Assembly (NCBI RefSeq): GCF_014174215.1
Contig: NZ_JABEQL010000031.1
Span: forward strand, 1 to 44,609
DNA: 44,609 nt
Direction: 5' to 3'
From: Gluconacetobacter tumulicola
GTDB taxonomy: Bacteria > Pseudomonadota > Alphaproteobacteria > Acetobacterales > Acetobacteraceae
Part shown: one piece after another, positions 12,078-44,609 of the stretch
How positions within the stretch are numbered: position 1 is the first letter of the stretch
Layout of the letters: each line of letters opens with the position of its first letter
Made by a program: the position numbers and the translations under genes
Notes under the pieces: generated by a model
What the model saw: the letters and a program-made list of their open reading frames with translations, nothing else
What the model was told of the DNA's origin: nothing
Database searches by the model: none

Positions 12078-12137
12078 GGGTTCGGCGGTAGCATGCGCGA
12101 CTGTTGGGCGGAAGGGGTGCGCGGGGGATGAGCGTTT

Positions 12138-12256
12138 CTTCTTTTTCTGAAGAAAAAGAAGCAAAAAGACTTTGATTCGTTCAGGAGCCTTGTGCCGGGG
12201 GCACACGATGTCCCTGAACGAAGAGAAGTTTTTTGGTTCTTTTTTCAAAAAAGAAC
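12138..12256. repeat. T/A-rich double-hairpin intergenic repeat, copy 1
   Basis: The element starts with a perfect 11-bp inverted repeat (CTTCTTTTTCT, GA, AGAAAAAGAAG; 12138-12161) and ends with a perfect 10-bp one (GTTCTTTTTT, C, AAAAAAGAAC; 12236-12256). Between them TTCGTTCAGG (12176) pairs with CCTGAACGAA (12213), so the whole unit can fold on itself. A second copy with the same ends lies at 27700-27818. It separates the DUF934 gene from waaA and could terminate transcription on either strand. Confidence 0.85.
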
Positions 12257-18370: not shown

Positions 18371-18390
18371 GGTGCAGACCCATATCCTCG

Positions 18391-18552
18391 GAGGCTGCTT
18401 GCAAAGTCACCCTGCCGGCGATCCGACGCGCATTTGCGGCACTTCGGTGCTCACGGCCATCAAGGCCGCTCCGCTCCGATGCTCAAAAATGCACGCCGGC
18501 CGTGCCGCCATGCGGCACTCTCGCTCGGCAGGCCGACTTTGCAAGCAGCCTC
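18391..18552. repeat. 162-bp palindromic element, copy 1 (in the cysH leader)
   Basis: The outer arms are GAGGCTGCTTGCAAAGTC (18391) and its exact complement at 18535-18552. The middle contains the family core CTTCGGTGCTCACGGCCATC continuing to CCGATGCTC. The arms differ from those of the other copies at 21219, 23080 and 31777, but each copy pairs with itself. On the minus strand it holds ATG and a 17-codon frame starting MAVSTEV that ends in TGA before cysH. The element lies between the cysH start codon and the upstream operator, so it would be transcribed as leader RNA. Confidence 0.9.
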
Positions 18553-18554
18553 TC

Positions 18555-18579
18555 AATGCACGAGAGGTTATCGTGCTTT
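18555..18579. promoter_or_regulatory. Sulfur-regulon operator candidate, cysH copy
   Basis: AATGCACGA-N7-TCGTGCTTT matches the site at 14878-14902 in half-site sequence and spacing, with one mismatch. The seven central bases differ (GAGGTTA against TTATTAA), which shows that the conserved part is the half-sites. It lies 185 bases upstream of the cysH start because the 162-bp element intervenes, and just downstream of a possible promoter on the minus strand, where a repressor could block transcription. Confidence 0.55.
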
Positions 18580-18587
18580 GAGGAGGG

Positions 18588-18615
18588 ATCTAACCATTCT
18601 TCGATCGATATTCAA
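18588..18615 (-). promoter_or_regulatory. Possible sigma-70 promoter of the cysH operon
   Basis: On the minus strand TTGAAT (18615-18610) and TTAGAT (18593-18588) are separated by 16 bases, a plausible -35/-10 pair. Transcription would start near 18581, right at the edge of the operator dyad. The match to consensus is moderate and there is no independent support. Confidence 0.35.
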
Positions 18616-18673
18616 GTGAAATATACGTCTTATTGGCGTGGTATTTTTGGCATGGCACCTATGATGAGGAGGA

Positions 18674-19558
18674 TCAGCGGCTCATCAGCACCGGGATTTC
18701 GGCATTCTCCAGAACATGGCGTGTGACACCGCCCAGGATCAATTGACGCAGGCGGGAGTGGGAATAGGCGCCCATGGCCAGCATGTCGGCACCGAAATCG
18801 CGGCAGGCCGCCAGCAGGCTGGCGCCCACCGTCTCGTCCGGGTCGCCGAATTCCACCAGGTCGGCGTGGATGCCGTGGATGGTCAGGTAGTCGGCGGCAT
18901 CGCGGGCTTCGGGGCCCCGGCGCTGATAATCGCCGGAATAGAGGATGCGCACCGCCTCGGCCTCGGCCGCCCAGGGCAGGATGTGATGCAGGGCCGCCGT
19001 GGCTTCCGACGTGCCGTTCCAGGCGATGCAGATGCGCCGCCCGGCTGTGGTGGGGGCACGGCGGGGGGCGATGACGACCGGGCGGCCGCTGTCGAACAGG
19101 ATGGCGTGCAGGGTCTCGGACGACGAGATTTCCTCGCCCGAATCCGGATGGGGGACCACGGTGACGTCGGACAGGCGGGCGCGGTAGGTCACGACCTCGT
19201 GCTCGCGGCCCATCATGGTGACGAGGCTGGCCGAGGCGCTGCCGATCGGGTTGCCGTGGAAGGGCGGGATGGCGTCGGTGACCGTCACGCCGTTATCGGT
19301 GGTGAACTGCGCGAACACCTCGCGCACGGCCAGCGCCCGGCGTGCGCCCTCGCGCTCGGCGGCGGACATCATGTCCTCGACCATCGCGCCGGACAGGCCC
19401 TCGCCGGCCAGGGGGGCGACGTCGCGGCTGTCGGCGCGCACATGCAGGGCGGCGATATGGCCGCCGAACTGCCGCGCGAAGAGCAGGCCGGTGGCCAGGG
19501 CGGCCTCGGCATTGGACGTCCCGTTCAGGGGTAGAAGGATTTTCTGTATATTCTTCAA
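18674..19558 (-). CDS. Universal stress protein with two Usp domains
   Basis: A 294-residue protein made of two UspA-like folds. The C-terminal domain holds the nucleotide-binding signature as MGAYSHSRLRQLILGGVTRHVLENAEIPVL, with G-x2-G-x9-G-type residues. The N-terminal domain (ILLPLNGTSNAEAALATGLL) is degenerate. Such tandem Usp proteins are linked to stress survival; the specific role is unknown. It follows pdxH by 42 bases on the same strand and is probably co-transcribed. Confidence 0.88.
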   Translation of the reverse strand: MKNIQKILLPLNGTSNAEAALATGLLFARQFGGHIAALHVRADSRDVAPLAGEGLSGAMVEDMMSAAEREGARRALAVREVFAQFTTDNGVTVTDAIPPFHGNPIGSASASLVTMMGREHEVVTYRARLSDVTVVPHPDSGEEISSSETLHAILFDSGRPVVIAPRRAPTTAGRRICIAWNGTSEATAALHHILPWAAEAEAVRILYSGDYQRRGPEARDAADYLTIHGIHADLVEFGDPDETVGASLLAACRDFGADMLAMGAYSHSRLRQLILGGVTRHVLENAEIPVLMSR

Positions 19559-19600
19559 TGTTATTCTCCAGAATCCCAGGAACGTCGTCAGCGGGAAGGG

Positions 19601-20209
19601 TCAGGGGTAGAGGCGCGTCGTCTCCCACCCCGCATCCTTGCCCGTGCGGCGCCATACCGCCCGGTCGTGCAGTCGGTGCGCGCGGTTCTGCCAGAATTCG
19701 ATCCGCTCCGGAATCAGGCGGAAGCCGGACCAGTCGGCCGGTCGCGGAATCGGCGTGCCTTCCGGATAGCGGGCCTCTTCCTCGGCCAGCCTCTGTTCGA
19801 ACACTGCCCGGTCGGCCAGGGGGCGGGACTGGTCGGAGGCGATGGCGCCCAGCCGCGAGAGGCGCGAGCGGCTGGCGAAATAGGCGTCCGCTTCCTCGTT
19901 GGTGACGGGTTCGACCGGTCCCTCGATCCGGATCTGCCGCATCAGGCTCTTCCAGTGGAACAGCAGCGCGGCCTGCGGGTTTTCCAGCAATTCGCCGGCC
20001 TTGCGGCTTTCAAGGTTGGTATAGAAGACGAAGCCGCGCCGGTCGGCGCCCTTGAGCAGGATCATCCGCACCGAGGGCTTGCCGTCGGGCGTGGCGGTGG
20101 CCAGCGCCATGGCATTGGCATCGTTGGGTTCGGCGGCTTCGGCCGCGCGCATCCAGTGGGCGAACAGGGCGAAGGGATCGGACCCCAGGTCGATCAGTGG
20201 CGTGGTCAT
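19601..20209 (-). CDS. pdxH: Pyridoxamine 5'-phosphate oxidase
   Basis: A 202-residue FMN enzyme oxidising pyridoxamine/pyridoxine phosphate to PLP in the cytosol. Family signatures are MALATATPDGKPSVRMILLK, GFVFYTNLESRKAGEL, LLFHWKSLMRQIRIEGPVE, and the C-terminal FRLIPERIEFWQ with DRAVWRR near the end. I start at ATG 20209 (MTTPLIDLGSDPF), five codons inside the longest frame. It is divergent from fabI across a 170-base promoter region. Confidence 0.95.
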   Translation of the reverse strand: MTTPLIDLGSDPFALFAHWMRAAEAAEPNDANAMALATATPDGKPSVRMILLKGADRRGFVFYTNLESRKAGELLENPQAALLFHWKSLMRQIRIEGPVEPVTNEEADAYFASRSRLSRLGAIASDQSRPLADRAVFEQRLAEEEARYPEGTPIPRPADWSGFRLIPERIEFWQNRAHRLHDRAVWRRTGKDAGWETTRLYP

Positions 20210-20379
20210 AGCGGTCGGTCCCATTCTGGCCGGGCGGGGGGTGGAAACATGGCCGGCATGCCACGCATTCGGTGAAACCGGGGCTGCTTCGCCGCTCGGA
20301 TCTTGTCCGACGCGCGCGCTTGTGCAACCACGGCGCCATTCCGATCATGCCATATTCCATCCATTCCGAGGATTCTATC

Positions 20380-21218
<839 letters not shown>

Positions 21219-21219
<1 letters not shown>

Positions 21220-21382
21220 AAACCTGCCCGGAGATGCGCGCTGGTGGCGATCCGGCGCGCGTTTCCTGTGCTCCGATGCTCACGGCCATCAAGGCCGCTC
21301 CGCTTCGGTGCTCGGAAACACACGACGGGCGCGGCCCGTTGGGCCGCTCTCGCTCACCAGCCCACATCTCCGGGCAGGTTTT
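21219..21382. repeat. 164-bp palindromic element, copy 2 (fabI-aroC)
   Basis: The outer arms are AAAACCTGCCCGGAGATG (21219-21236) and its exact complement at 21365-21382, starting on the last base of the fabI stop. The core is as in the other copies, but the two 11-base motifs CTTCGGTGCTC and CTCCGATGCTC are in swapped order. The minus strand carries ATG and a frame beginning MAVSIGAQETRAG. The right arm ends 38 bases before aroC. Confidence 0.9.
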
Positions 21383-21420
21383 GCGGGCGGGTTGGGTGGT
21401 AGTGAAGGGATTATCGGGTC

Positions 21421-22506
21421 ATGTCGGATAACAGTTTCGGGCATCTGTTCCGGGTGACGACCTGGGGGGAGAGTCATGGGCCGGCGATTGGCTGTGTGGT
21501 CGATGGCTGCCCGCCGCGCATCGCGCTGTCCGAGGCCGATATCCAGCCCTGGCTGGACCAGCGGCGGCCCGGCCAGTCGAAATTCACCACCCAGCGGCAG
21601 GAGCCCGATTCCGTCGAGATCCTGTCCGGTGTGTTCGAGGGACAGACGACCGGCACCCCGATCTCGCTGCTGATTCGCAATGTGGACCAGCGGTCGCGCG
21701 ATTATGGCGATATCGCCGAGCGCTATCGGCCGGGCCATGCCGATGTGGCCTATGACCTGAAATATGGCATTCGCGACTATCGCGGCGGTGGGCGGTCTTC
21801 GGCCCGGGAGACCGCGATGCGGGTGGCGGCGGGTGCCGTGGCGCGGCAGGTGCTTGGCGCGGGCGTGCGCATTCGCGGCGCGCTGGTGAAGATCGGCACG
21901 CATGACGTCGACCGGGCGCGCTGGGACTGGGACGCGGTTGGGGACAATCCGTTCTTCTGCCCCGATCCGGAGATGGTGCCGGTGTGGGAAGAGTATCTGG
22001 GCGCCGTGCGCAAGGCCGGGTCTTCGGTCGGTGCGGTGGTCGAGATCGTGGCTGAGGGCGTGCCGCCGGGGCTGGGGGCGCCGATTTACGGCAAGCTCGA
22101 TTCCGATCTGGCGATGGCGCTGATGAGCATCAATGCCGTGAAGGGGGTCGAGATCGGTGACGGGTTCGCTGCTGCTGCCCTGACCGGCGAGGAAAATGCC
22201 GACCCGATGCGGATGGAAGATGGGCGGCTGATCTTCGGCGCCAACCATGCGGGTGGTGTGCTGGGTGGGATTTCCACCGGCCAGCCTTTGGTGGCGCGGT
22301 TTGCGGTGAAGCCGACCAGTTCGATTCTCACGCCCGTTCCCTCGGTGACGCGGAGTGGGGAGAATGTCGAGGTCTCGACGCGCGGGCGGCATGATCCGTG
22401 CGTGGGGATTCGGGCTGTGCCGGTCGGTGAGGCGATGATGGCGTGTGTGCTGGCCGATCATCTGCTGCGTCACAGAGGACAGACCGGGCACGATCCGCGC
22501 GCCTGA
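21421..22506 (+). CDS. aroC: Chorismate synthase
   Basis: A 361-residue FMN-dependent enzyme converting EPSP to chorismate at the end of the shikimate pathway. The three family signatures are all present: [17 protein letters not shown] at about 15-31, [20 protein letters not shown] in the first third, and [16 protein letters not shown] near the C-terminus. Length is typical. It starts with ATG 38 bases after a palindromic repeat, and its stop codon lies inside a hairpin shared with the convergent OsmC gene. Confidence 0.96.
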
Positions 22507-22560
22507 CCCAAAATGCGCGCTGGTGGCGATCAGGCGCTCACCAGCGCGTTTTTGGTCAGG
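22502..22560. terminator. Bidirectional hairpin between aroC and the OsmC gene; core-less palindromic element
   Basis: CCTGACC then CAAAATGCGCGCTGGTG (from 22502) pairs with CACCAGCGCGTTTTTGGTCAGG up to 22560, leaving a short loop. Both gene stops lie in the stem: the aroC TGA at 22504-22506 and the OsmC TGA at 22556-22558. The arms resemble the inner arms of the copies at 21219 and 31777 (GCGCGCTGGTGGCGATC and CGCTCACCAGC), with the roughly 100-base core missing. The U-rich side GTTTTTGG suits termination. Confidence 0.75.
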
Positions 22561-22987
22561 CCTTCAGCGTCGCTTCCAGCGTGATTTCGGCCTTGAGCAG
22601 TTTGGAGATCGGGCAGCCGGCCTTGGCCTTGGCGGCGAGGTCCTGGAACTGTTCCTCGGTCGCGCCGGGGATGGTGGCCGTGAGGGTCAGGTGGGCGGCG
22701 GTGACCGCGAAGCCGTCGGGCTGCTTTTCCAGCGAGATGACCGATTTGGCGTCCAGCGCGGTGGCGGTGAGGCCGGCGCCGCCGAGGATGCCCGACAGGG
22801 CCATGGCGAAGCAGGCGGCATGGGATGCGCCGATCAGTTCCTCGGGGTTGGTGCCGGCCACGCCTTCGAAGCGGGTGTTGAAGCCGTAGGGCAGGGCGGA
22901 CAATGCGCCGCTTTCGGTTGAAATGGTGCCCTTGCCGTCCTTCAGGCCGCCTTCCCAGTGGGCGGTGCCGAATTTCTTGATGGTCAT
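22556..22987 (-). CDS. OsmC/Ohr-family peroxiredoxin-like protein
   Basis: A 143-residue OsmC-family protein, a thiol peroxidase group that detoxifies organic hydroperoxides. The two redox cysteines are present in SHAACFAMAL and KAGCPISKLL, and the N-terminus KKFGTAHWEGGLKDGKGTIS is typical of the OsmC branch. The ATG at 22987 is the family start. The same frame is open upstream to 23221 and begins inside the palindromic element at 23080-23242, but that extension has no family match. Confidence 0.9.
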   Translation of the reverse strand: MTIKKFGTAHWEGGLKDGKGTISTESGALSALPYGFNTRFEGVAGTNPEELIGASHAACFAMALSGILGGAGLTATALDAKSVISLEKQPDGFAVTAAHLTLTATIPGATEEQFQDLAAKAKAGCPISKLLKAEITLEATLKA

Positions 22988-23079
22988 GGCGTCGGTTCCT
23001 TCGATGGTTGGCGGAGTGCCCGACCATAACGCGGTGCCGCGTGGGAGGGACCTGCCGGAGCGCACACGATCCGGTGAAA

Positions 23080-23242
23080 GAGGCTGCTGCAAAAGCCCCG
23101 CTGGCGGCGGCCTGACGGCGGTTTCCTGCGCTTCGGTGCTCTCGGCCATCAAGGCCGCTCCGCTCCGATGCTCAAAAACCACCGCCAGACGCGTGGCTGG
23201 CGCCACGCTTCCGCTCACCATCGGAGCTTTTGCAACAGCCTC
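23080..23242. repeat. 163-bp palindromic element, copy 3 (OsmC-metX divergent region)
   Basis: The outer arms are GAGGCTGCTGCAAAAGC (23080-23096) and GCTTTTGCAACAGCCTC (23226-23242), complementary except for one G-T pair. The core is CTTCGGTGCTCTCGGCCATC on to CTCCGATGCTC. On the minus strand a frame begins MAESTEAQETAVRPPPAG and reads on, in frame, to the OsmC gene. The rest of 22988-23360 shows no riboswitch or RNA gene that I can recognise. Confidence 0.9.
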
Positions 23243-23360
23243 TGCGCATGGGATAATGGATTTGGGCGCAGCCTCCTGTTGCGTGTGTTCGGCGCTGGTG
23301 CCATAGGACGACCGACCGTGACGGGGATGTTGCCCGCGCCCTGCAATCGTTCATGACGGA

Positions 23361-24530
23361 ATGCCTGCCCGCGCAATGGACCAGACAACGCCCACCCAGA
23401 TCGAGCATGCGCACATGCTGTTTCCCGAGGGGATGCAGCTTGAATGCGGTTTCCGGCTGGCGCCGGTGCGGGTCGCGTATCGGACCTATGGCACCCTGTC
23501 GGCGGCGCGGGATAATGCGATCGTGGTCTGCCATGCCCTGACGGGCGACCAGTATCTGGCCGAAACCCACCCGCTGACCGGCAAGCCGGGCTGGTGGAGC
23601 CGCATGGTCGGGCCGGGGCTGCCGATCGATACCGACCGGTTCTTCGTCATCTGCATGAACGTGCTGGGCGGCTGCATGGGCTCGACCGGGCCGCGCGATC
23701 CGCGCCCCGACGTGGCGGGCGAGCCGTGGGGCACCGATTTTCCGCCCATCACCATCCGCGACATGGTGCGCGCGCAGAAGCTGGTGGTCGATGCGTTGGG
23801 CATTGCCCGGCTGTTCGCCGTGGTCGGCGGCTCGATGGGCGGGATGCAGGTGCTGGAATGGGCTGCCACCTTCCCCGACATGGTCTTCGCCGCCATGCCG
23901 ATCGCGACCTCGCCCTTTCATTCGGCGCAGAACATCGCCTTCAACGAGGTGAGCCGGCAGGCGATCTTCGCCGATCCCGACTGGCATGGCGGGCGCTACT
24001 GGGAGCAGGACGCGGTGCCGGCGCGCGGGCTGGCGGTGGCGCGGATGATGGCGCACATCACGTACCTGTCCGAAGAGGCGCTGACGCGGAAATTCGGCCG
24101 CCGGGTGCGGCGCGACCCGTATAACCAGGCGGGGGCGATGTCGCTGTTCGGCGAGATCTTCGAGGTGGAGAGCTATCTGCGGCATCAGGGATCGTCGTTC
24201 GTGCGGCGGTTCGATGCCAATTCCTATCTGACCATCACGCGGGCCATGGATTATTTCGACCTGGGCGCCGACCATGACGGGGACCCGTCGCGGCCCTTCC
24301 ATGGCACGCGCACGCGCTTCTGCATCGTCTCGTTCACCTCCGACTGGCTGTTCCCGACCTCGCAGGCGCGGCTGCTGGCCCGGGCGCTGAACCGCGCGGC
24401 GGCCAACGTGTCGTTCGTCGAGATCGACAGCGACAAGGGGCATGATGCCTTTCTGCTCGATGAGCCGGATTTCGACCGGACGGTGCGCGGCTTCCTGTCC
24501 GGCGCCGCCGAACATGCACGGATCGGCTGA
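23361..24530 (+). CDS. metX: Homoserine O-acetyltransferase (MetX)
   Basis: A 389-residue alpha/beta hydrolase acylating homoserine in methionine synthesis. The nucleophile is Ser158 in [10 protein letters not shown]; the acid Asp is in SDWLFPTSQ and the His in [10 protein letters not shown]. Further family pieces are [19 protein letters not shown] and [20 protein letters not shown]. Substrate choice between acetyl- and succinyl-CoA cannot be read with certainty. An ATG at 23376 ([13 protein letters not shown]) is an alternative start. MetW follows 3 bases after the stop. Confidence 0.93.
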
Positions 24531-24533
24531 CCC

Positions 24534-25139
24534 ATGCGCCTTGACCAGCGGCTGATTGCCGACATGATCCGTCCCGGCACGCGGGTGCTCGACATCGGCA
24601 GCGGTGACGGGGCGTTGCTGGATTACCTGTTCCGCACCCGAGGCTGCGATGCGCGGGGGATCGAGATCGACATGCGCGAGGTCACGCGCTCGGTCGCCCA
24701 CGGGCTGCCGGTGATGCATGGCGATGCCGACCATGATCTGGCGCATTATCCCGACGAGGCGTTCGATTATGTGGTGTTGCAGCGCACCTTGCAGGCGGTC
24801 GAGCGGCCGCGCGAGGTGCTGCGGCAGATGCTGCGGATCGGACGGCATGCCATCGTCTCGTTCCCCAATTTCGGCCATTGGCAGTTGCGGCTGAAGCTGT
24901 TGACGAGCGGACGGATGCCGATGACGGCGGTGTGGCATACGCCGTGGTACCAGACGCCGAACATTCATCCGTGCACCATCCTCGACTTCCTGATGCTGTG
25001 CCGCGAGGAAGGCTATGTGGTCGAGCAGTGGATGGCGGTGGACGAGGATGGTGAGCGCGCGCCGTGGCGCCGCTCCATCCGGCTGGCCAATCTGTTCGGT
25101 GAGCAGGCGCTGTTTCTATTACGCCGCCGGGGACATTGA
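24534..25139 (+). CDS. metW: Methionine biosynthesis protein MetW
   Basis: A 201-residue class I SAM-methyltransferase fold. The SAM loop is VLDIGSGDGALLDYL, followed by GIEID and the MetW-typical ISFPNFGHW-like VSFPNFGHWQLRL and TPWYQTPNIHPCTILDF. MetW is found beside MetX across proteobacteria and is thought to support its activity. The 3-base gap after metX indicates one operon and coupled translation. Confidence 0.94.
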   Translation: MRLDQRLIADMIRPGTRVLDIGSGDGALLDYLFRTRGCDARGIEIDMREVTRSVAHGLPVMHGDADHDLAHYPDEAFDYVVLQRTLQAVERPREVLRQMLRIGRHAIVSFPNFGHWQLRLKLLTSGRMPMTAVWHTPWYQTPNIHPCTILDFLMLCREEGYVVEQWMAVDEDGERAPWRRSIRLANLFGEQALFLLRRRGH

Positions 25140-25169
25140 GCTGTTGCTACAGACACTGACGGACCTGTC

Positions 25170-26087
25170 GTGACGGGCGGCCCTGCCGTTCTGGTCGGGA
25201 TCGACGGGGGTGGGACGCGGGCGCGCCTGCGGCTGGCGACGCCGGAGGGTGTTCTGCTGGCCGAAGGGGAAGGCGGACCCGCCAATATCGCCACCGATGC
25301 CGGGCAGGCGTGGGATTCGATTGGTCAGGCGCTGGATCTGGCGCTGTCGCGGGCGGGCCTGTCGGGTGCGGAATGCCGGCTGGTTGCCGTGGCTGGGCTG
25401 GCGGGGACCGAGGTGAGCGGGGCCGTGGCGCGGTTCCTGGCCCGGCCGGCGCTGTTCGCGCGCCTCGATATCGTCTCGGATGCCTATACGTCCTGCGTCG
25501 GGGCCCATGCGGGCGAAGACGGGGCCATGATTGCGGCCGGAACCGGGATGGTGGGGCTGGCTATCGTCGGCGGGGCCACCCGGCGGGTCGGGGGGTGGGG
25601 CTTTCCGCAGGGGGACGAGGGTGGCGGGGCCTGGATCGGGCTGGAGGCTGTCCGGCTGATGCTGCGCGCGGGTGATGGCCGGGCGCGGCCCACGCTGTTG
25701 AGCGAGGCGGTGCGCGCGCGGCTGGCGGATGAGGGGGCGGAGCCGATGCTGTGGGCGGTTGGTGCGCGGGCTGCAGATTTCGCCCGGGTGACGCCGCTGG
25801 TCTGCGCGCTGGCGGAGCAGGGGGACGTGCAGGCGCGGGGGCTGCTGGCCCGTGCCGGGGCGGAGGTCGAGGCGCTGCTGGCCGCCCTGCGCGCGGCGGA
25901 CGGTTTCGGGGCGCTGCCCTGCTGCCTGCTGGGCGGGCTGGCGCCGGTGCTGCTGCCTTATCTTTCCGCCGGTGCGCAGGCCGGTCTGTCGGTGCCGAGG
26001 GGGCATGCGATCGACGGTGCGATGCTGCTGGCGCGGCGGCTGCATGAGGCCGCCCCGGAGGCGCCCGGAGACAGCCAGCCGGAATAA
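25170..26087 (+). CDS. BadF/BadG-type ATPase, N-acetylglucosamine kinase-like
   Basis: A 305-residue sugar-kinase/hsp70-fold protein. The N-terminal phosphate-1 loop is VGIDGGGTRARLRL, the adenosine side holds IAAGTGMVGLAI, and GWGFPQGDEGGGAWIG is the GxGxxxGDEGS-type segment of BadF/N-acetylglucosamine kinases. It most likely phosphorylates an amino sugar, possibly recycled from peptidoglycan; the exact substrate is not provable. It begins with GTG 30 bases after metW and may share that transcript without a functional link. Confidence 0.8.
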   Translation: MTGGPAVLVGIDGGGTRARLRLATPEGVLLAEGEGGPANIATDAGQAWDSIGQALDLALSRAGLSGAECRLVAVAGLAGTEVSGAVARFLARPALFARLDIVSDAYTSCVGAHAGEDGAMIAAGTGMVGLAIVGGATRRVGGWGFPQGDEGGGAWIGLEAVRLMLRAGDGRARPTLLSEAVRARLADEGAEPMLWAVGARAADFARVTPLVCALAEQGDVQARGLLARAGAEVEALLAALRAADGFGALPCCLLGGLAPVLLPYLSAGAQAGLSVPRGHAIDGAMLLARRLHEAAPEAPGDSQPE

Positions 26088-26366
26088 GGACTTGCGGTGG
26101 GGAGCGCATGCGGGTAGAAGCCTCGCCCGTGGACGGTCCCCGCCTGTCCCGTATCTGGACTTGTACGCGCGTGCCTTATTGATGCGGGGGGCACGGACTG
26201 GACGGACAAGAGACCCTTTCTGACCCACGGATTACGGTGAATGACAGCGTGCCCTGCCAGGCAGGGGCGCGAACCGTGCGTCGTGTTTTCCTTTCAAGTC
26301 TTTCCGGATGCTCATCCTGTCGTGAGGAATCCGGCCATTGCCGAGTGCCCGGAGGCGCTTCATTTC
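26088..26366. other. Leader region upstream of the DEAD-box helicase gene
   Basis: No coding feature that I can support. It includes a perfect 7-bp stem CCCTGCC-A-GGCAGGG (26252-26266) about 100 bases before the helicase ATG. RNA-helicase genes often have long structured leaders, so a regulatory leader is possible but unproven. Confidence 0.3.
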
Positions 26367-27641
26367 ATGACGACTTTTGCCGACCTTCAGCTTGCCGAGC
26401 CGTTGCTGCGCGCGCTGAACGAGGAAGGATACACCACCCCGACCCCCATCCAGGCCGGGGCCATCCCGCACCTGCTGGCCGGGCGGGACCTGCTGGGCCT
26501 GGCGCAGACGGGCACCGGCAAGACGGCGGCCTTCGCGCTGCCGATCCTGCATCGGCTGCTGACCCATCATCGCCGTGCCGCCCCCAAGGGCGCGCGCGTT
26601 CTGGTTCTGGCGCCGACGCGCGAGCTGGCATCGCAGATCGATGAGAGCTTCAAGGCCTATGCCCGCCATATGCGCCTGAGCCATGCCGTGATCTTCGGCG
26701 GTGTCGGCCAGGGCCGGCAGGTCGAGGCGATGCGCCGTGGCGTCGACGTGCTGGTTGCCGCCCCCGGCCGTCTGCTGGATCTGATGGGCCAGGGCCATAT
26801 CGACCTGTCCGGGCTGGAAGTGCTGGTTCTGGACGAGGCCGACCGGATGCTGGACATGGGCTTTGTCCGCGACATCCGCCGCATCGTGGCCGAGCTGCCG
26901 CGCGACCGGCAGACGCTGCTGTTCTCGGCGACCATGCCGCGCAGCATTGCCGAGCTGGCGCATGGCCTGCTGCGCGACCCCGCGACCGTGCAGGTCACGC
27001 CGCCGTCCAGCACCGTCGACCGTATCCGCCAGGCGGTGATGTTCGTCGATACCGACAAGAAGCGTGACGCGCTGCAGATGCTGGTGGACTCGCCCAAGGT
27101 CGAGCGCGCCGTGGTGTTCACGCTGATGAAGCATGAGGCCAACAAGGTCGCCGCCTTCCTGAACGACCACGGTATCGTGGCCGAGGCGATCCATGGCAAC
27201 AAGTCGCAGGGTGCGCGCGAGCGGGCGATGTCGGGTTTCCGTTCCGGTGCCGTCAAGGTGCTGGTGGCGACCGACATTGCGGCGCGCGGCATCGACGTCG
27301 ATGACGTCACGCACGTCTTCAACTACGACCTGCCCAACGTGCCGGAGAGCTATGTTCACCGGATCGGCCGTACGGCCCGCGCCGGGCGTGAGGGCTGGGC
27401 GGTGTCGCTGTGCGATGCCGAGCAGCGGGCGTGGCTGCGCGATATCGAAAAGGCGATCGGCAAGCCGATCCCGGTGGTGATGGAGCATCCGTACCATTCC
27501 GAGGCGGCCGAGAAATCGACCATGCGGCCGCCGGTATTGGGCGGCGGCGGTGGCCGGGGCCGTGGGGGTGGCGGCGGTGGCCGCAACCAGTCCCGCTCGG
27601 GCGGCGGGCAGCATCGTGGCGCTCCGCGTCGCGTTGCCTGA
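26367..27641 (+). CDS. rhlE: DEAD-box ATP-dependent RNA helicase, RhlE type
   Basis: A 424-residue RNA helicase for RNA unwinding in ribosome assembly or decay. In order: Q-motif (GYTTPTPIQ), Walker A AQTGTGKT (46-53), PTREL, GG, TPGR-like APGR, DEAD (156-159), SAT (187-189), and in domain 2 ARGID and HRIGRTARAG. The C-terminal tail is a glycine/arginine (RGG-like) stretch, as in RhlE. The ATG at 26367 (MTTFADLQLAEPLLRAL) is the family start; the longer frame is leader. A hairpin follows the stop. Confidence 0.92.
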   Translation: MTTFADLQLAEPLLRALNEEGYTTPTPIQAGAIPHLLAGRDLLGLAQTGTGKTAAFALPILHRLLTHHRRAAPKGARVLVLAPTRELASQIDESFKAYARHMRLSHAVIFGGVGQGRQVEAMRRGVDVLVAAPGRLLDLMGQGHIDLSGLEVLVLDEADRMLDMGFVRDIRRIVAELPRDRQTLLFSATMPRSIAELAHGLLRDPATVQVTPPSSTVDRIRQAVMFVDTDKKRDALQMLVDSPKVERAVVFTLMKHEANKVAAFLNDHGIVAEAIHGNKSQGARERAMSGFRSGAVKVLVATDIAARGIDVDDVTHVFNYDLPNVPESYVHRIGRTARAGREGWAVSLCDAEQRAWLRDIEKAIGKPIPVVMEHPYHSEAAEKSTMRPPVLGGGGGRGRGGGGGGRNQSRSGGGQHRGAPRRVA

Positions 27642-27644
27642 TTG

Positions 27645-27685
27645 AAGGGGGCGCTCCGTTGGAAGACGGGGCGCCCTTTCTTCTT
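27645..27685 (+). terminator. Rho-independent terminator of the helicase gene
   Basis: Four bases after the stop, GGGGGCGC (27647-27654) pairs with GCGCCCTT (27671-27678, two G-U pairs), followed by a T-rich stretch TTTCTTCTTT. The loop is long at 16 bases. Confidence 0.6.
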
Positions 27686-27699
27686 TGGGGGGAAGGTCT

Positions 27700-27818
27700 C
27701 TTCTTTTTCTGAAGAAAAAGAAGCAAAAAGACTTTTATTCGTCTTGGGTCATCGTATGGCCCAGCAAAAAACTCCTGAACGAATCAAAGTTTTTTGGTTC
27801 TTTTTTTCAAAAAAGAAC
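27700..27818. repeat. T/A-rich double-hairpin intergenic repeat, copy 2
   Basis: It begins with the identical 24-base hairpin of the copy at 12138 (CTTCTTTTTCT, GA, AGAAAAAGAAG), continues with CAAAAAGACTTT, and ends with CTGAACGAATCAAAG and the GTTC-T7-C-A6-GAAC stem at 27797. The centre differs from copy 1 (here it contains TTGGGTCATCGTATGGCCCAG, itself a partial dyad). It lies between convergent genes, and the MFS gene ends inside it. Confidence 0.85.
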
Positions 27819-29253
27819 ATCCTGTCAGAATACCCATGGCCGGCATGATCGCGAACAGCGCGAACACCCAGAATGCCGCCCTTTCGGCCCCCACCATGCC
27901 GCCAGGGTCTGCCAGGCCGGCAATGTTGGCGATCATGCCGGCCCAGGCACCGGCCAGTGCCGTGGTGTAGAGCTGCACCGTGGTCAGGGAGGCCGAGGCC
28001 AGGTCGCGGTCGGCGGGCTGGGCGGTGAGCAATACGCGCGTCAGCAGATGCGGCCACGCCGTGCCGACGCCCAGGCCCACCATCAGGAACGTGACGCAGA
28101 CGGGCGCCATCGCCTGCCATGCGCCATCGGTGGGCACGGACAGATAGAAGGCCAGGAAGAGAATGCCGGCCAGCCCCAGCGCGGGGGCGGCGACCAGGGC
28201 GCATGCGACGCGGGCAGGTGGGGCGCCGGCATTGAGGATCGAGCCTGTGGACCAGCCGGCGGCCATCAGTACCGACAGATAGCCGGCGGTAAGGGGGGGC
28301 TGGCGGTGCAGATCCTGCAAGAAGAGCGGCGCGAAGATCTCGATCACTTCCACGGTCAGGGCCAGGCAGCCCATCAGGGCGTATAAGGGGGCCAGACTGG
28401 AGCCCCAGACCAGCGCGCGTGCGGGCAGCAGGCGCGTGCCGCCCTGCCGTTCGAGATGGGCGAGGCAGGCGAACAGGCCCAGCACGATCAGGCATCCGGC
28501 CAGGTTTTCCCATCCATGCGGGCTGGCGCCGGCCACGGCCAGGCACAGCACCGAGCCGACCATCAGCGCGATCTGCCGCCAGGCGATGCCGGGGAAGCTG
28601 CCGGCTTCGACACCGGTGGTGCGCGGCAGCACGCAGGTTGCGAGCGTGGCGAACGGGATCGACAGCGCCGCCAGCGTCCAGAAGGCGGCGCGCCAGACGC
28701 CCAGCCCCGCGAACAGGCCGCCAATGGCCGGCCCGATCAGCGTGGCGACGCCCCACATCGAGGACAGCATGCTCATGGCCCGTGGCCACAGGCCGGGCGG
28801 GAAGACCAGCCGGATGACGGCATAGGCCATCGAGACCAGCAGGCCCGAGCCGACCCCCTGCATCATGCGCCCGGCCAGCATCACCGGCATGGCGGGAGCG
28901 GTGGCGCACAGCACGGCGCCGGTGGCGAAGATGGCGACCGCGATTGCGTAGGCGGTGCGGGGGCCGAAACGGCCCAGCGCGCGCGCCGACAGCGACGAGC
29001 CGACGATCGAGGCCGCGACGAAAAGCGATGTGTTCCACGTGTAATAGCGCATGCCGCCGATATCGCGCACCGCCGAGGGCAGCACGGTCATGGCCATGTA
29101 CAGGTTGATGGCATGCAGCACGACGCCGGCGGAGAGGGTGATGGAGCGCGCCGCGTTGCCGCCGGAAAACAGGGCCCCCCAGCCGGTCGCGGCGCGGGCC
29201 GGCCGTGCCGCGGAATGGGGGAGGGGTGTCCCCGACGGGGTATCAGAGCTCAT
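27784..29253 (-). CDS. MFS transporter with about 14 membrane helices
   Basis: A 489-residue major facilitator of the multidrug (DHA2/EmrB-like) type, with roughly fourteen hydrophobic segments. The N-terminal half carries ALGRFGPRTAYAIAVAIFAT (motif A-like) and GRMMQGVGSGLLVSMAYAVI (motif C/G-like). No EmrA-like partner is adjacent, and the substrate is unknown. The last eleven residues, CSFLKKRTKKL, are encoded by the T/A-rich repeat, so the original 3' end was replaced when that element arrived. A positively charged tail in the cytosol is probably tolerated. Confidence 0.82.
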   Translation of the reverse strand: MSSDTPSGTPLPHSAARPARAATGWGALFSGGNAARSITLSAGVVLHAINLYMAMTVLPSAVRDIGGMRYYTWNTSLFVAASIVGSSLSARALGRFGPRTAYAIAVAIFATGAVLCATAPAMPVMLAGRMMQGVGSGLLVSMAYAVIRLVFPPGLWPRAMSMLSSMWGVATLIGPAIGGLFAGLGVWRAAFWTLAALSIPFATLATCVLPRTTGVEAGSFPGIAWRQIALMVGSVLCLAVAGASPHGWENLAGCLIVLGLFACLAHLERQGGTRLLPARALVWGSSLAPLYALMGCLALTVEVIEIFAPLFLQDLHRQPPLTAGYLSVLMAAGWSTGSILNAGAPPARVACALVAAPALGLAGILFLAFYLSVPTDGAWQAMAPVCVTFLMVGLGVGTAWPHLLTRVLLTAQPADRDLASASLTTVQLYTTALAGAWAGMIANIAGLADPGGMVGAERAAFWVFALFAIMPAMGILTGCSFLKKRTKKL

Positions 29254-29317
29254 GAACGCTGCCTGTTACTGTCCGACAGCCCACTGTGCAACCTGCGGGA
29301 TGGGAGGGATGCGGCTG

Positions 29318-31846
29318 CTATCCGTGGCTTTCGTCGTGGATGGGCCAGTAGATCGGCGGCTGGAGAAGCGGGCCGGGCCGGGCGAACAGATAGCCTTGCC
29401 CGTAATCGCAGCCCAGTTCCCGCAGGATGGCGGCCTGGGCCTCGGTCTCGATTCCCTCGGCGACGACCTGCTTGTGCAGGGCCTTGCCGAGCGAGATGAC
29501 CGAGCGGACGATCTCGTGCGCGTTGCGGGCCGGCATCGTGAGCTGGCGGACGAAGGACCGGTCGATCTTGATGATGTCGACGGGGAAGCGCAGCAGATGC
29601 ACCAGCGACGCGTAGCCGGTGCCGAAATCGTCGAAGGCGATGCGGATGCCGGCCGTGTGCAGGACGTGCAGGGCCTCGGCGATCTCGTCGGACGCATGGT
29701 CGAGGGCGATGCCTTCCGTGACCTCGACGCAGAGCCGGTGGGGCGGGACCCCGGCCTCCTGCAGGCGATTGAGAATGTGCCGCCCCGCCGCCGCCCCGCG
29801 CAGATGCACGCCGGTGAAATTGACCGCGATATAGGCCAGCCCGTCGCCGACATCGGACAGCGCGCTCAGGGCGATGGAGATGACTTCGTCCTGCAGCCGG
29901 GGGCCGATCGTCTCGTCCATCAGCAGGATCTGGAAATCGGGCGGCGCCAGCAGGCCGAGTTCCGGATGGTTCCAGCGCAGCAGGGCTTCGTTGCCGCGTT
30001 GGCGGCCGGTCTTCAGATCGATCAGGGGCTGGTAGTAGAGCGTGAATTCCCCCGCCGCGAGGGCGTGGGGGGCGTCGGCCAGCAGCCGCGCGGCCAGGCT
30101 GTCGGCGCGGTCGAATTCCGCGGTGTAGGGCTGCCTGCGCCCGCCGCCGCGCTGCTTGGCCCAGTACAGCGCCCGGTCTGCCCGATGCATGGCGGAGACC
30201 GGGGAGCCGTTGCATTCCGTCTGTCCCACGCTGAACCAGAGCGACAGGGTGCGGCCGGATTGGGACCAGGGTTCTCCCTGAAGGGCATCGAGCCTTTCGA
30301 GCAGCGCCTGTTCCACCGATCGGGGCACGAGGATGCCGAATTCGTCGCCCCCCAGCCGGGCGAGGGCGGTGCCGTCGGGAACGATCTGGCCGAGGCGCAT
30401 GGCCATGTGACGCAGCAGATTGTCGCCCAGCTCCTGACCATAGGAATCGTTGACCGATTTCAGGTGATCCACGTCGATCAGCAGCAGCGTGGTCAGCGGG
30501 TCGGCCTGGTCGAGCGCCGCCTGGAACGCGGCGCGATTGTCCAGCTGGGTCAGATGGTCGGTCATTGCCGCGCGGCGCAGCGTTTCGGCTTCGGTCTGCA
30601 TCACGGCCATCGCGCGAGCTGCCCTGTCGCGCGCGCGCCCGATATCGCGCAGCCGACAGGCGACGGTGACCGACAGCGCGACCGCTTCGAAGGCGATGCA
30701 GGCGAATGTCGCCATGTCGATCGTGTCGCTCTGGGGCAGGAAGCCCATATTGCGGGCCAGCCGCACCATGAAGACCGCAATGACGGGCAGCCAGCCCAGC
30801 AGGAAGAACCAGATGATCCGGCTTCGCCTGCGGATGGCGACGGCAATCGTCGCGGCAATCCACACGACGTCCAGGATCAGCACGGCATTGAAGACGCGAT
30901 CGGTCCATACGGGCGGGAGCAGCGTGTCGGCCGCCGCGGCGAAGCCGGCGAGGGTCGAGAGAACGGTCAGGACATAGCCTGTCCACAGCAGGTATTTGTG
31001 GCGGGCCTCGAACTCGATGAGGGTCAGCAGGAGCATGGTTCCGGCGGCGACCGTGGCACCCAGGAAACAATCGCTGAGCCTGACCGCCAGCGGGCCGGTC
31101 AGGCGGTCGTCGAACAGGCCGAGGAAATTCGTCCAGGAAAGGCAGTAGCCCAGCGTCAGCACGGTCCACACGGCATACCAGATCTGGAAACGATCGCGGC
31201 GCCCGTTATAGGTGGCCAGGTTGTAGACCATCGCGGAGATCAGGGCCCCGATCAGCACCCCGATCAGGATCAGCCAGGCCATGCTCCGCGCGGCTTCCTC
31301 ATCAGGGGTGCGGGCTTCGATCTTGCGGATGAAGATGGCGCCGTCGAGATGATGAAAGCCGATCGACAGGCTGGAGATTTCGACACCGGGGGAATCGAAG
31401 GCGAATCGCAGCAGGCCGCCGGGGGCCCAGTCATGGCCGACCCCGCCGTCGGCATAACTGTAGTTCTGGATGCTGCCGTCGCTGTTCGTTGCGGCGACGG
31501 TTATGCGATCGAAACGATTCTCGTCGAGAAGCAGCGCCCAGCCCGCAGGCAGGTCCTTCAGCACGGACGGGTCGGAGAGATGCAGCCAGACCCATCCGTC
31601 CGTCCTGGGCGGCGTTGCGCAGCCCCGGATGCTGTAGGCAGACCGGGCCAATTGCTCCACCATGCCGGCGGCGCCGTCCAGGCAGATGGACGGGTGCAGG
31701 TCCAGAGGGTCGGCATGGGCCGGCACGCCCAATGGCGAGATCAGCATTGACAGCAGGATCGCCAATGCACCTTTGAGAGCCCGTTTGGAAATGCGCGCTG
31801 GAGGCGGTCCGACGCGCGCGTCCTGCGCTTCGGTGCTCACTTCCAT
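29318..31846 (-). CDS. Membrane-bound GGDEF-EAL protein with a 7TM-DISM-like sensor
   Basis: An 842-residue cyclic-di-GMP enzyme. A secretory signal (about 22-46, ending PAHA) is followed by a periplasmic 7TMR-DISM-type domain, about seven to eight membrane helices at 190-400, a GGDEF domain (LGGDEFG at 498-504) and an EAL domain. The EAL catalytic set is intact: E620 in NEALLRW, N676, E711 in VEVTEG, D739-D740 in DDFGTGY, K760 in IKIDRSF, and E797/E800 in AEGIET. No RxxD inhibitory site precedes GGDEF. Both activities are therefore possible. The ATG at 31846 and first 20 or so residues come from the palindromic element at 31777; a TTG just before the hydrophobic core could be the ancestral start. 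Confidence 0.88.
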   Translation of the reverse strand: MEVSTEAQDARVGPPPARISKRALKGALAILLSMLISPLGVPAHADPLDLHPSICLDGAAGMVEQLARSAYSIRGCATPPRTDGWVWLHLSDPSVLKDLPAGWALLLDENRFDRITVAATNSDGSIQNYSYADGGVGHDWAPGGLLRFAFDSPGVEISSLSIGFHHLDGAIFIRKIEARTPDEEAARSMAWLILIGVLIGALISAMVYNLATYNGRRDRFQIWYAVWTVLTLGYCLSWTNFLGLFDDRLTGPLAVRLSDCFLGATVAAGTMLLLTLIEFEARHKYLLWTGYVLTVLSTLAGFAAAADTLLPPVWTDRVFNAVLILDVVWIAATIAVAIRRRSRIIWFFLLGWLPVIAVFMVRLARNMGFLPQSDTIDMATFACIAFEAVALSVTVACRLRDIGRARDRAARAMAVMQTEAETLRRAAMTDHLTQLDNRAAFQAALDQADPLTTLLLIDVDHLKSVNDSYGQELGDNLLRHMAMRLGQIVPDGTALARLGGDEFGILVPRSVEQALLERLDALQGEPWSQSGRTLSLWFSVGQTECNGSPVSAMHRADRALYWAKQRGGGRRQPYTAEFDRADSLAARLLADAPHALAAGEFTLYYQPLIDLKTGRQRGNEALLRWNHPELGLLAPPDFQILLMDETIGPRLQDEVISIALSALSDVGDGLAYIAVNFTGVHLRGAAAGRHILNRLQEAGVPPHRLCVEVTEGIALDHASDEIAEALHVLHTAGIRIAFDDFGTGYASLVHLLRFPVDIIKIDRSFVRQLTMPARNAHEIVRSVISLGKALHKQVVAEGIETEAQAAILRELGCDYGQGYLFARPGPLLQPPIYWPIHDESHG

Positions 31847-31940
31847 ACAGGCCGCTCCGCTCCGATGCTCGGAAACATACGCCGGGCGCAGCCCGTTCCA
31901 GGCCGCTTTCGCTCACCAGCGCGCATTTCCAAACAGGCTC
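31777..31940. repeat. 164-bp palindromic element, copy 4 (5' end of the GGDEF-EAL gene)
   Basis: The outer arms are GAGCCCGTTTGGAAATGCGC (31777-31796) and GCGCATTTCCAAACAGGCTC (31921-31940), 19 of 20 paired, and pairing continues inward through GCTGG/CCAGC. The core has CTTCGGTGCTCACTTCCATA and CTCCGATGCTC; the GGCC inner dyad is partly lost. On the minus strand ATG (31846-31844) opens the frame MEVSTEAQDARVGPPPARIS, which runs into the signal peptide of the GGDEF-EAL protein. Confidence 0.9.
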
Positions 31941-32338
31941 CGAGCATCAGAAGGTCTTTATCCGTATTGCGGCTTCCGCCGTAGCCAGGGGGAGGACAGG
32001 CTGATTGATTCCCACGATTGACCTTATACTGAGTGTTGAGGTGCGGTATCGTGTGTGGTCCTGAGACGTCAGGCAAGGTCCATATGGACGATTCCTGCCT
32101 GGTTCATTGTTCGTGAGCGGCAAATATAACTAAAGAGCCGCAACAGCATATGCGCTCGGCGTGCGCTGGTCGAGAGGCGAGTGAGGATGGCTTGCCGGGC
32201 CGCCGGCCGATGATCATGCGCCCCGTGGGGAGGCCTGTGCCTGTACCCTGGCGCGCCTTTATTGTATCGGGTGTGGAATTTTTATCCTTTTGCATCCCGT
32301 CCGGTGATTCAGGGCCTTTTCATGTTCGGGATGGCATT
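31941..32338. other. 398-base intergenic region with a 32-base dyad
   Basis: No gene recognised. A dyad at 32070-32101 has CAGGCA outside, TGCCTG outside, and the 12-base palindrome GTCCATATGGAC at 32078-32089 inside. It lies about 225 bases upstream of the GGDEF-EAL start and could be an operator for that gene. An AT-rich stretch near 32270-32300 lies beyond the 3' end of glgP, with a weak long-loop stem (GCATCCCG/CGGGATGG). Confidence 0.3.
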
Positions 32339-36955: not shown

Positions 36956-37195
36956 GGCCCTGCTCGCCACGGATGGGGTTCGCGCGTAGCTTAGCGGGAT
37001 CGGGGCGGAAAGGCGAGAAAATCCGGCGGCGAGCGGGAATGTTTTCCGGTTTTTTCTGTTGTTATATCGTGATGAAAGATCATTAAAAATAAAGGGAAAT
37101 ATTGGAGTTTGTTTTGAATGTGTGAAAAATCTTGAATTTTCCTGATAATTCCTGTTTAATTGATTTTACTAATAAAGCTTATGGAGGTTGATGTT
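36956..37195. promoter_or_regulatory. AT-rich divergent promoter region with a strong SD for the polyol dehydrogenase
   Basis: From about 37030 to 37180 the DNA is much richer in A/T than its surroundings, as expected for a promoter in this genome. GGAGG at 37183-37187 lies 8 bases before an in-frame TTG at 37196 and overlaps an in-frame ATG at 37181 that has no SD of its own. This favours the TTG as start. Confidence 0.5.
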
Positions 37196-38683: not shown

Positions 38684-38694
38684 AGGTGCCTGAA

Positions 38695-44209: not shown

Positions 44210-44453
44210 CACGCACATGATCCTGGCCTATGCCGGGGGGGGGGGGCGGATCTGCCGACCGTGGCAGATCTGCGCCGATGCGCGGGACGATCATTGTGCG
44301 CAGGCGGAAGCGTTTCTGGCGATGGAGGACGTGTTCGGGCCGCCTCTGCCGGATCATGACGGGCAGGTTGCGGCCATTGCGGATATGCTGCGGCGTCTCA
44401 CGGATGGGGATGTGCGGGCTGTGCTGCGTGAGGTCGCGAAAGCCTGTTCGTAA
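44210..44453 (+). pseudogene. Deleted partial copy of the mannitol dehydrogenase gene
   Basis: The first 31 bases match the intact gene from 38095, then a run of twelve G replaces GGGGGGCTGG. At the hexamer GGCAGA the sequence jumps to the intact gene's 38493 and runs to its TAA and a few bases beyond. I count 8 mismatches in 194 bases (44263-44456 against 38493-38686). The 347-base deletion plus the 2-base G insertion keeps the frame, giving a meaningless 78-codon frame from ATG 44217. The Rossmann and catalytic parts are absent. Confidence 0.9.
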
Positions 44454-44609
44454 AGGCGCGCGCGACCGCGGCTATGGCCGGGGAAGAACGAACCCGCTGC
44501 GCGGGAATGGTGTAGCGTGGCTGTCTGTCACCACGGCGTGAAACAGGTGTTTTATTTGAAGCTGACCTGATGGTCCGCCGCACTCTGGCTTGTGTCCAAC
44601 ACAAGGAGC
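44454..44609 (+). promoter_or_regulatory. Right-edge leader with a strong Shine-Dalgarno sequence
   Basis: No gene in these bases. A small stem CCCGC-TGC-GCGGG lies near 44495. The window ends with AAGGAG at 44603-44608, ideally placed for a start codon a few bases beyond the edge. A plus-strand gene therefore probably begins just outside the window. Confidence 0.45.

What the first reader, a model, noticed from the sequence alone, without database searches (positions are those of the whole stretch)
18391..31940. A family of 162-164 bp palindromic elements whose arms co-vary
Four copies (18391-18552, 21219-21382, 23080-23242, 31777-31940) share the core CTTCGGTGCTC...GGCCATCAAGGCCGCTCCGCTCC...GATGCTC. 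Their outer arms differ strongly: GAGGCTGCTTGCAAAGTC, AAAACCTGCCCGGAGATG, GAGGCTGCTGCAAAAGC and GAGCCCGTTTGGAAATGCGC. In every copy the other end is the complement of its own arm (18/18, 18/18, 16/17, 19/20). Length stays nearly fixed. Complementary change suggests selection for a fold, or a replication mechanism that copies one arm onto the other. I know of no description of this element, and it encodes no transposase, so it would be a non-autonomous or RNA-acting unit.
Basis: seen in the sequence. Interest (0 to 1): 0.75.

Follow-up and report, generated by a model that had tools for sequence, protein, structure and literature searches.

The report
Foldback mobile repeat at gene ends
A 162-base hairpin-forming DNA repeat is scattered in about a hundred copies through an acetic-acid bacterium, often starting right at the stop signal of a gene, and repeats with the same folded core but quite different arms occur in distant members of its bacterial class.

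Summary
In detail: four 162-164 bp copies with complementary but mutually different ends. The genome gives 113 matches to a covariance model; all 14 genomes of the genus (Gluconacetobacter) have matches. It is mobile: related species have exact empty sites and insertion duplicates 3 bp (TNA within CTNAG). Its arms resemble the termini of IS5-family elements of the genus, which have TNA duplications too. It behaves as a foldback MITE, the arms being its ends.

Covariation is real (38 of 59 pairs). Between orthologous copies double changes are concentrated in few loci (28 of 46 have none), and modules reassort, which fits exchange between copies. G-U does not exceed A-C, so RNA-level selection is not supported on the strand modelled.

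Three things go beyond an ordinary MITE. A core with conserved mismatches and freely changing stems recurs in distant Alphaproteobacteria. About half the copies in three species start within 1 bp of a stop codon, almost always in one orientation. Two loci look like transcription terminators.

No mobilising enzyme is proven; no IS with identical ends was found. I found no published description; Brucella Bru-RS repeats are the nearest candidate and were not compared.

The parts
18391..18552 (+). Element copy 1 (162 bp)
   Evidence: CM R1 166.0 bits; absent at the same place in G005, G001, G006, G007, G010, G004
18388..18390 (.). Left target duplication of copy 1 (now TCG, from TCA)
   Evidence: empty sites read ..CC-TCA-ATGCACG
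18553..18555 (.). Right target duplication of copy 1 (TCA)
18425..18495 (+). Core (long arm P2 with the conserved mismatches) of copy 1
   Evidence: alignment A7, pairs
21220..21381 (+). Element copy 2, directly after the fabI stop codon
   Evidence: CM R1 186.4 bits; FabI by NF006019 over its cut-off; site shared by G003, G005, G001, G006, G010 with differing contents
21217..21219 (+). fabI stop codon TGA = left target triplet of copy 2 (right triplet 21382-21384 now TGC)
21254..21324 (+). Core of copy 2
23080..23242 (+). Element copy 3 (163 bp); of the twelve genomes aligned, found in the window genome, G003 and G005; no recognisable target duplication
   Evidence: CM R1 158.2 bits
23114..23184 (+). 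Core of copy 3
31777..31940 (+). Element copy 4 (164 bp)
   Evidence: CM R1 151.3 bits; absent in G005, G001, G006, G007, G010
31774..31776 (.). Left target duplication of copy 4 (TGA; right 31941-31943 now CGA)
   Evidence: empty site ACCTTTGAACATCAG in G006 and G010
31811..31881 (+). Core of copy 4
   Evidence: same offset as copies 1 and 3
22502..22560 (+). Remnant of the same element lacking its core, overlapping the aroC 3' end
   Evidence: aroC by TIGR00033 over its cut-off

Best explanation
The element is a foldback MITE: a non-coding DNA element whose ends are terminal inverted repeats of the IS5-family type. Shown: many copies, insertion polymorphism with exact empty sites, 3-bp TNA duplication within CTNAG, and IS5-family ISs in the genus with ends of like type and the same TNA duplication. 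Inferred: such transposases move it in trans. The arms co-vary because both ends must fit one transposase and because paired modules (stem alleles) are exchanged between copies by ectopic gene conversion, which swaps both strands of a stem at once; this is supported by double changes concentrated in few orthologous loci, copies that look chimaeric and reassorted modules, but not proven. The internal core is kept by selection on a folded single strand (extruded DNA hairpin or RNA): its stems change freely while loop bases and T.T mismatches are conserved in distant Alphaproteobacteria. What reads that fold is unknown. About half of the copies start right after stop codons; some old copies look like terminator hairpins.
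For: Empty sites at copies 1 and 4 and a G005-only insertion at the stop codon of a DEAD-box helicase gene; duplications TCA, TGA, TGA. 17 of 83 copies keep identical 3-bp flanks, 7.7 expected, maximum of 2000 shuffles 14; TNA at 44 left and 26 right flanks; target CTNAG. 6 of 30 DUF4096 loci examined have IS ends starting GAG with identical TNA flanks; two of their transposases scanned are IS5 family NF033580 over the cut-off, with PF13340 and PF01609. Orthologous loci vs G003: 74 two-sided Watson-Crick changes, 131 one-sided, in 46 loci; 6 loci hold 50 of the 74, 28 have none. At the L092/L241 locus the G003 copy is 99.4% identical to another G003 copy, as exchange predicts. G001 halves look chimaeric at two loci; all eight tip x P3 combinations occur in the own genome. 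Core: 12 of 16 pairs with double changes, T.T mismatches kept.
Against: None of the six ISs with GAG ends lies in the own genome (they are from G001, G004, G012, G013), and none has ends identical to an arm over 18 bp; the closest shares the first 12 bases. Arms not starting with GAG (34 of 81 copies) are matched to no IS. For the locus with most changes (L049) no close donor was found among the copies held: nearest other copy 87%, while the G003 version is 95% identical to the G006 orthologue. Only 17 of 83 copies keep an identical duplication. In distant genomes stop codons TAA and TAG also adjoin the element by eye, which TNA targeting does not explain. An internal structure conserved across a class is unusual for a MITE.
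Confidence: 0.66

Rival explanations
1. RNA element: the folded transcript (3' UTR module, terminator or small RNA) is the selected unit, and covariation is compensatory evolution of the RNA.
For: Left edge within 1 bp of an in-frame stop codon of a coding-like frame in 40/81 (G000), 44/90 (G003), 23/40 (G006) copies; right edge 6, 4, 1; moved edges 0.4-0.7%: an orientation-locked 3'-end location. Tips AAAACCTG/CAGGTTTT fixed in six species at fabI; a hairpin remnant after a stop codon in G007. Core loops conserved across the class. The A-C excess by cells (142 vs 77, p=1.3e-5) would fit the opposite strand as the RNA.
Against: No G-U excess on the modelled strand; the A-C excess rests on five columns (74 vs 91 without them, p=0.21); class-wide core G-U 6, A-C 5. 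In the G003 orthologue comparison one-sided mismatches (83) outnumber wobbles (45). Sense orientation after genes does not agree with the opposite strand being the RNA. No Rfam match. A T-run of 4 or more at the right edge is rare: 7/81, 6/90, 7/40.
Confidence: 0.2
2. Arm-to-arm copying: replication template switching within the palindrome rewrites one arm as the complement of the other.
For: At L049/L175, flanks 97.5 and 96% identical, 11 two-sided and 0 one-sided pair changes and no close donor found among the copies held; 72 of 83 copies have at least 15/18 paired outer bases.
Against: T.T mismatches of the core are not turned into T-A in any of the 26 class-wide sequences nor in the combinations listed for the three genomes; no excess of palindrome extension into flanks, L008 with 9 bp being the exception; 28 of 46 loci have no double change; one apparent flank rewriting (L231) is explained by a deletion between GCCTGA repeats (my reading).
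Confidence: 0.15
3. Stop-codon-targeted insertion: an unknown machinery places the element at stop codons in a set orientation, independent of a TNA preference.
For: Strong left/right asymmetry in three genomes; neighbours on the left read toward the element in 63 of 83 copies, on the right in 31 of 83. In 40 distant loci a stop lies within 5 bp of the fold's left boundary in 12, of the right in 2, control 4.4%, p=0.013.
Against: Loss of harmful insertions would also enrich gene ends; copies away from stops include TGA and TCA targets, so a target preference for CTGA cannot be told from selection; boundaries are rough and a long-ORF test in distant genomes showed no bias (20 vs 17).
Confidence: 0.15

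Closest known systems
Bru-RS1 / Bru-RS2 palindromic repeats of Brucella (alphaproteobacteria)
   Same: Palindromic, 103-106 bp, dispersed, intergenic, tied to an IS (IS711) with a reported preference for inserting into them (passages of PMC10800456, PMC2266754, PMC2267715).
   Different: Shorter; no Bru-RS sequence was seen here, so a shared core is neither shown nor excluded.
IS5-family MITEs (IS1031-like group)
   Same: Short, non-coding, ends of IS5 type, 3-bp TNA duplication, ISs with like ends in the genus. That the IS1031 group uses TNA is recalled.
   Different: The whole element folds; the core is conserved in distant genomes; ends differ widely between copies; gene-end location in one orientation.
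REP/REPIN-RAYT systems
   Same: Abundant extragenic palindromes with mismatched hairpins, mobile in trans (recalled; PMC3116915 and PMC2817692 seen in the search listing only).
   Different: REPINs are shorter (recalled); no RAYT partner was searched for; here TNA duplications and IS5-type ends occur.
ERIC / RU elements of enterobacteria
   Same: About 100-170 bp mobile repeats in intergenic regions (start of the abstract of PMC2759123; palindromic nature recalled).
   Different: No sequence comparison made; another class of bacteria.

Membership tests
MITE | Short, non-coding, multi-copy | tested here: met
   113 CM matches in the own genome at E<=0.01 (150 of 5356 first-look candidates scored), most full length, a few weak or antisense duplicates; open frames cross it but none is a transposase by reading
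MITE | Terminal inverted repeats | tested here: met
   72 of 83 copies have at least 15/18 paired outer bases
MITE | Target-site duplication and empty sites | tested here: met
   three insertions with empty sites and TCA/TGA/TGA duplications; copy 3 has no recognisable duplication; 17 of 83 copies keep identical triplets
MITE | Related autonomous element with matching ends | tested here: inconclusive
   IS5-family ISs with GAG ends and TNA flanks at 6 of 30 loci, none in the own genome, none identical to an arm over 18 bp; 9 own-genome PF01609 loci showed no matching ends
MITE | Mobilisation by that transposase | not testable with these tools
   needs an experiment
Structured RNA family | Covarying base pairs | tested here: met
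Structured RNA family | Excess of G-U over A-C on the modelled strand | tested here: not met
Structured RNA family | Transcript | not testable with these tools
   no RNA data
Bru-RS | Sequence identity of the core | not tested
   no Bru-RS sequence was seen
REPIN | RAYT (TnpA_REP) partner | not tested
   not searched

The most novel reading that the evidence does not exclude
An Alphaproteobacteria-wide family of folded-strand elements with a mismatched core (GC-T-NCGN-T-GC on both strands of the hairpin, variable apical stem) and exchangeable arms. It is placed in a fixed orientation directly at the stop codons of genes and acts there as a portable mRNA 3'-end module, borrowing the transposon ends of whatever transposase its host carries.
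Probability: 0.25. Interest if true: 0.82.

Novelty: new variant of a known kind. Interest (0 to 1): 0.62.

Why it matters
A core recognisable by its mismatches and loops while its stem bases change links repeats of Acetobacteraceae with repeats in other alphaproteobacterial families and gives a searchable model for them. It offers a test case for two open questions: how both ends of a transposon change together, and whether mobile hairpins at gene ends are kept as transcription or mRNA-stability modules. The stop-codon adjacency makes predictions testable in culturable acetic-acid bacteria.

Tried and rejected
Rejected or unsupported: (1) RNA-strand preference: counts lean to A-C over G-U (hint of the opposite strand) both on 30 copies and on 92 rows (p=1.3e-5 by cells), but the column test is p=0.30 and without five columns the excess is gone. 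(2) Palindrome spreading into flanks: no excess in 89, 99 and 44 copies; L231 looked like copying of a gene end but fits a repeat-mediated deletion. (3) IS partners among 9 PF01609 loci of the own genome: no matching ends found. (4) A long-ORF test for gene orientation in 41 distant loci did not discriminate (20 vs 17); the boundary test on 40 loci did, weakly. There the fold boundary was placed inside the three-way junction for L080-L083, so they counted as misses although L082 and L083 show TGA at the edge by eye. (5) PMC4686929 mentions MITEs only in general (passages).

Selections: one search took 75 sources and kept E<=1e-6, giving 101 matches, 93 distinct, of the 113. Copies shorter than 150 or longer than 175 nt were left out (83 left); one search also needs 200 bp of flank (81, 90, 40). 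One search keeps loci whose two flanks share enough 11-mers with one target (46 of 83 for G003, 12 of 83 for G006); 99 of 136 G003 copies and 44 of 66 G006 copies were targets. One antisense duplicate (L123) was dropped. Gene calls rest on open frames and codon-position G+C, on open-frame length, not on annotation.

Weak R3 matches outside the class (best E 1.6e-9) were not inspected. The genome sets were searched with strict filters and per-genome caps, so counts are lower bounds.

Papers: passages of PMC4686929, PMC2267715, PMC10800456, PMC2266754, PMC5082802 were seen; all others only in search listings. The original Bru-RS paper (1994) was not seen. 'No published description' rests on the searches in the held open-access library only.
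Full report
WHAT WAS CLAIMED AND WHAT IS THERE. The four copies exist as described; arms pair 18/18, 18/18, 16/17 and 19/20 and differ between copies. Copies 1 and 2 fold with z-scores of -9.94 and -10.55 against shuffles. The fold has an outer stem P1, a three-way junction, a long arm P2 with fixed mismatches and a GGCC apical stem, and a short hairpin P3.

COPIES. blastn with copy 1 gives 51 matches in the own genome, 40 of 171 candidates scored. Covariance model R1 (30 copies, 59 pairs) gives 113 matches at E<=0.01 in the own genome (150 of 5356 candidates scored), and 136 in G003 and 66 in G006 at E<=1e-6 (150 scored each). Among 60 relatives, the own genome included, 20 have matches: all 14 of the genus and 6 others. 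Endobacter medicaginis carries an exact 30-base core.

IT IS MOBILE. Aligning the region with eleven other genomes of the genus gives empty sites. Copy 1: CC-TCA-ATGCACG empty, TCG-element-TCA filled. Copy 4: TGA empty, TGA-element-CGA filled. G005 has an extra copy at the TGA stop codon of a DEAD-box helicase gene (RhlE-like, below the curated cut-offs) where the window has none, flanked by TGA on both sides. Copy 2 is older, its site filled in six of the twelve genomes; copy 3 in three. Across 83 copies 17 keep identical 3-bp flanks (7.7 expected, maximum of 2000 shuffles 14); TNA stands at 44 left and 26 right flanks; the wider target is CTNAG. Of 30 DUF4096 loci examined in the genus, six show IS ends starting GAG with identical TNA flanks, for example GAGCCCGATCCGAAAGTT with TTA, TAA or TCA; they lie in G001, G004, G012 and G013, none in the own genome. 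One IS end shares its first 12 bases with element arms, including the right arm of copy 4. Two of these transposases were scanned and are IS5 family. So the arms look like transposon ends; that these enzymes move the element is inferred.

COVARIATION. It is strong by the shuffled and slid controls, but two facts matter. First, comparing 46 orthologous loci with G003 (this region 96-97% identical between the genomes), two-sided Watson-Crick changes (74) are far more than independent change would give (my arithmetic from the 131 one-sided changes: about one). They are uneven: six loci hold 50 of them (6 to 11 each), 28 loci have none. For G006, 12 loci give 45 two-sided and 57 one-sided changes. 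L049/L175 has flanks 97.5 and 96% identical, 11 two-sided and no one-sided changes; the G003 version is 95% identical to the G006 orthologue, so the change probably lies on the own lineage, and no donor closer than 87% was found among the copies held. At another changed locus the G003 copy is 99.4% identical to a second G003 copy. At copy 2 the tips AAAACCTG/CAGGTTTT stay in six species while the inside switches between alleles. G001 looks chimaeric at two loci. All eight tip x P3 combinations occur in the own genome. Exchange between copies explains this best. Second, G-U does not exceed A-C: 77 vs 142 cells, 19 vs 27 columns, p=0.30. The A-C lean is carried by five columns. This argues against RNA-level selection on the modelled strand and is inconclusive for the other.

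STOP CODONS. The left edge lies within 1 bp of an in-frame stop codon of a coding-like frame in 40/81 (own genome), 44/90 (G003) and 23/40 (G006) copies; the right edge in 6, 4 and 1; moved edges 0.4-0.7%. Left neighbours read toward the element in 63 of 83 copies, right neighbours in 31 of 83. Gene calls are crude (open frame plus codon-position G+C), but both edges were treated alike. TNA targeting plus loss of harmful insertions can enrich gene ends, but the orientation bias needs an asymmetric target choice (CTGA over CTCA) or selection; the copies away from stops are too few to decide. At fabI and at the DEAD-box gene the stop codon is the same in genomes without the insertion. At the L049 locus the G007 orthologue is reduced to a hairpin right after the stop codon; with the fixed tips at fabI this suggests co-option as terminators in some copies. 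Terminator function is inferred, and T-runs at the right edge are rare overall.

CLASS-WIDE CORE. Model R2 (18 diverse copies) finds matches in 11 of 289 genomes of the class, the own genome included. A core model R3 (26 sequences, 71 positions) finds 109 of 398 genomes of the phylum at E<=0.001; the 21 below 1e-10 are all of the same class, five of them sources of the model. The weaker ones, among them all those outside the class, were not inspected. In the core 12 of 16 pairs show double changes, while many loop bases are invariant and two T.T mismatches are kept in 24/26 and 25/26 sequences, the rest being T.G or G.T. Plasmids of Sphingobium, Shinella, Phyllobacterium and others hold DNA 60-90% identical to one such element over part of its length (33 records; two looked up). 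In 40 distant loci a stop codon lies within 5 bp of the left fold boundary in 12 and of the right in 2, control 4.4%, p=0.013; an earlier long-ORF test showed no bias (20 vs 17). So the stop-codon link outside the genus is suggestive only.

VERDICT. It works like a MITE and meets the MITE criteria that could be decided here; an autonomous partner with identical ends was not found. It differs in its conserved folded core, its changing ends and its gene-end placement. No Rfam family matches. The open-access library searched gave no description; Bru-RS of Brucella, another alphaproteobacterial palindrome tied to an IS, is the nearest candidate and should be compared.

Noticed in passing
window 22502-22560: Remnant of the same element without its core, overlapping the aroC 3' end; G003 and G006 have fuller copies at this place.
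   Followed up: partly
window 12125-12252 and 27687-27813: A second, different repeat pair with self-complementary A- and T-rich stretches, 88-89% alike in the two parts reported.
   Followed up: no
window 38493-38689 and 44263-44459: 197-bp near-duplicate (95%), and a 31-bp exact repeat at 38095 and 44210: probably a second partial copy of the dehydrogenase gene 37160-38683 (fructuronate reductase / mannitol dehydrogenase type, below cut-offs).
   Followed up: no
G000:C3:165362-165997 and G000:C4:198953-199416: Head-to-tail arrays of three to four element copies about 165 bp apart; copies in an array can have different arms.
   Followed up: partly
L008 around 1501-1662: The one copy of 89 whose flanks are complementary for 9 bp beyond the element.
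   Followed up: no
window 31777-31940: A listed open frame (29318..31846, minus strand, long signalling-protein-like frame by eye) starts inside copy 4; automatic start calls there may be wrong.
   Followed up: no
phylum search, outside the class: Weak core-model matches (E 1.6e-9 and weaker) in other Pseudomonadota, some several per genome, not inspected.
   Followed up: no
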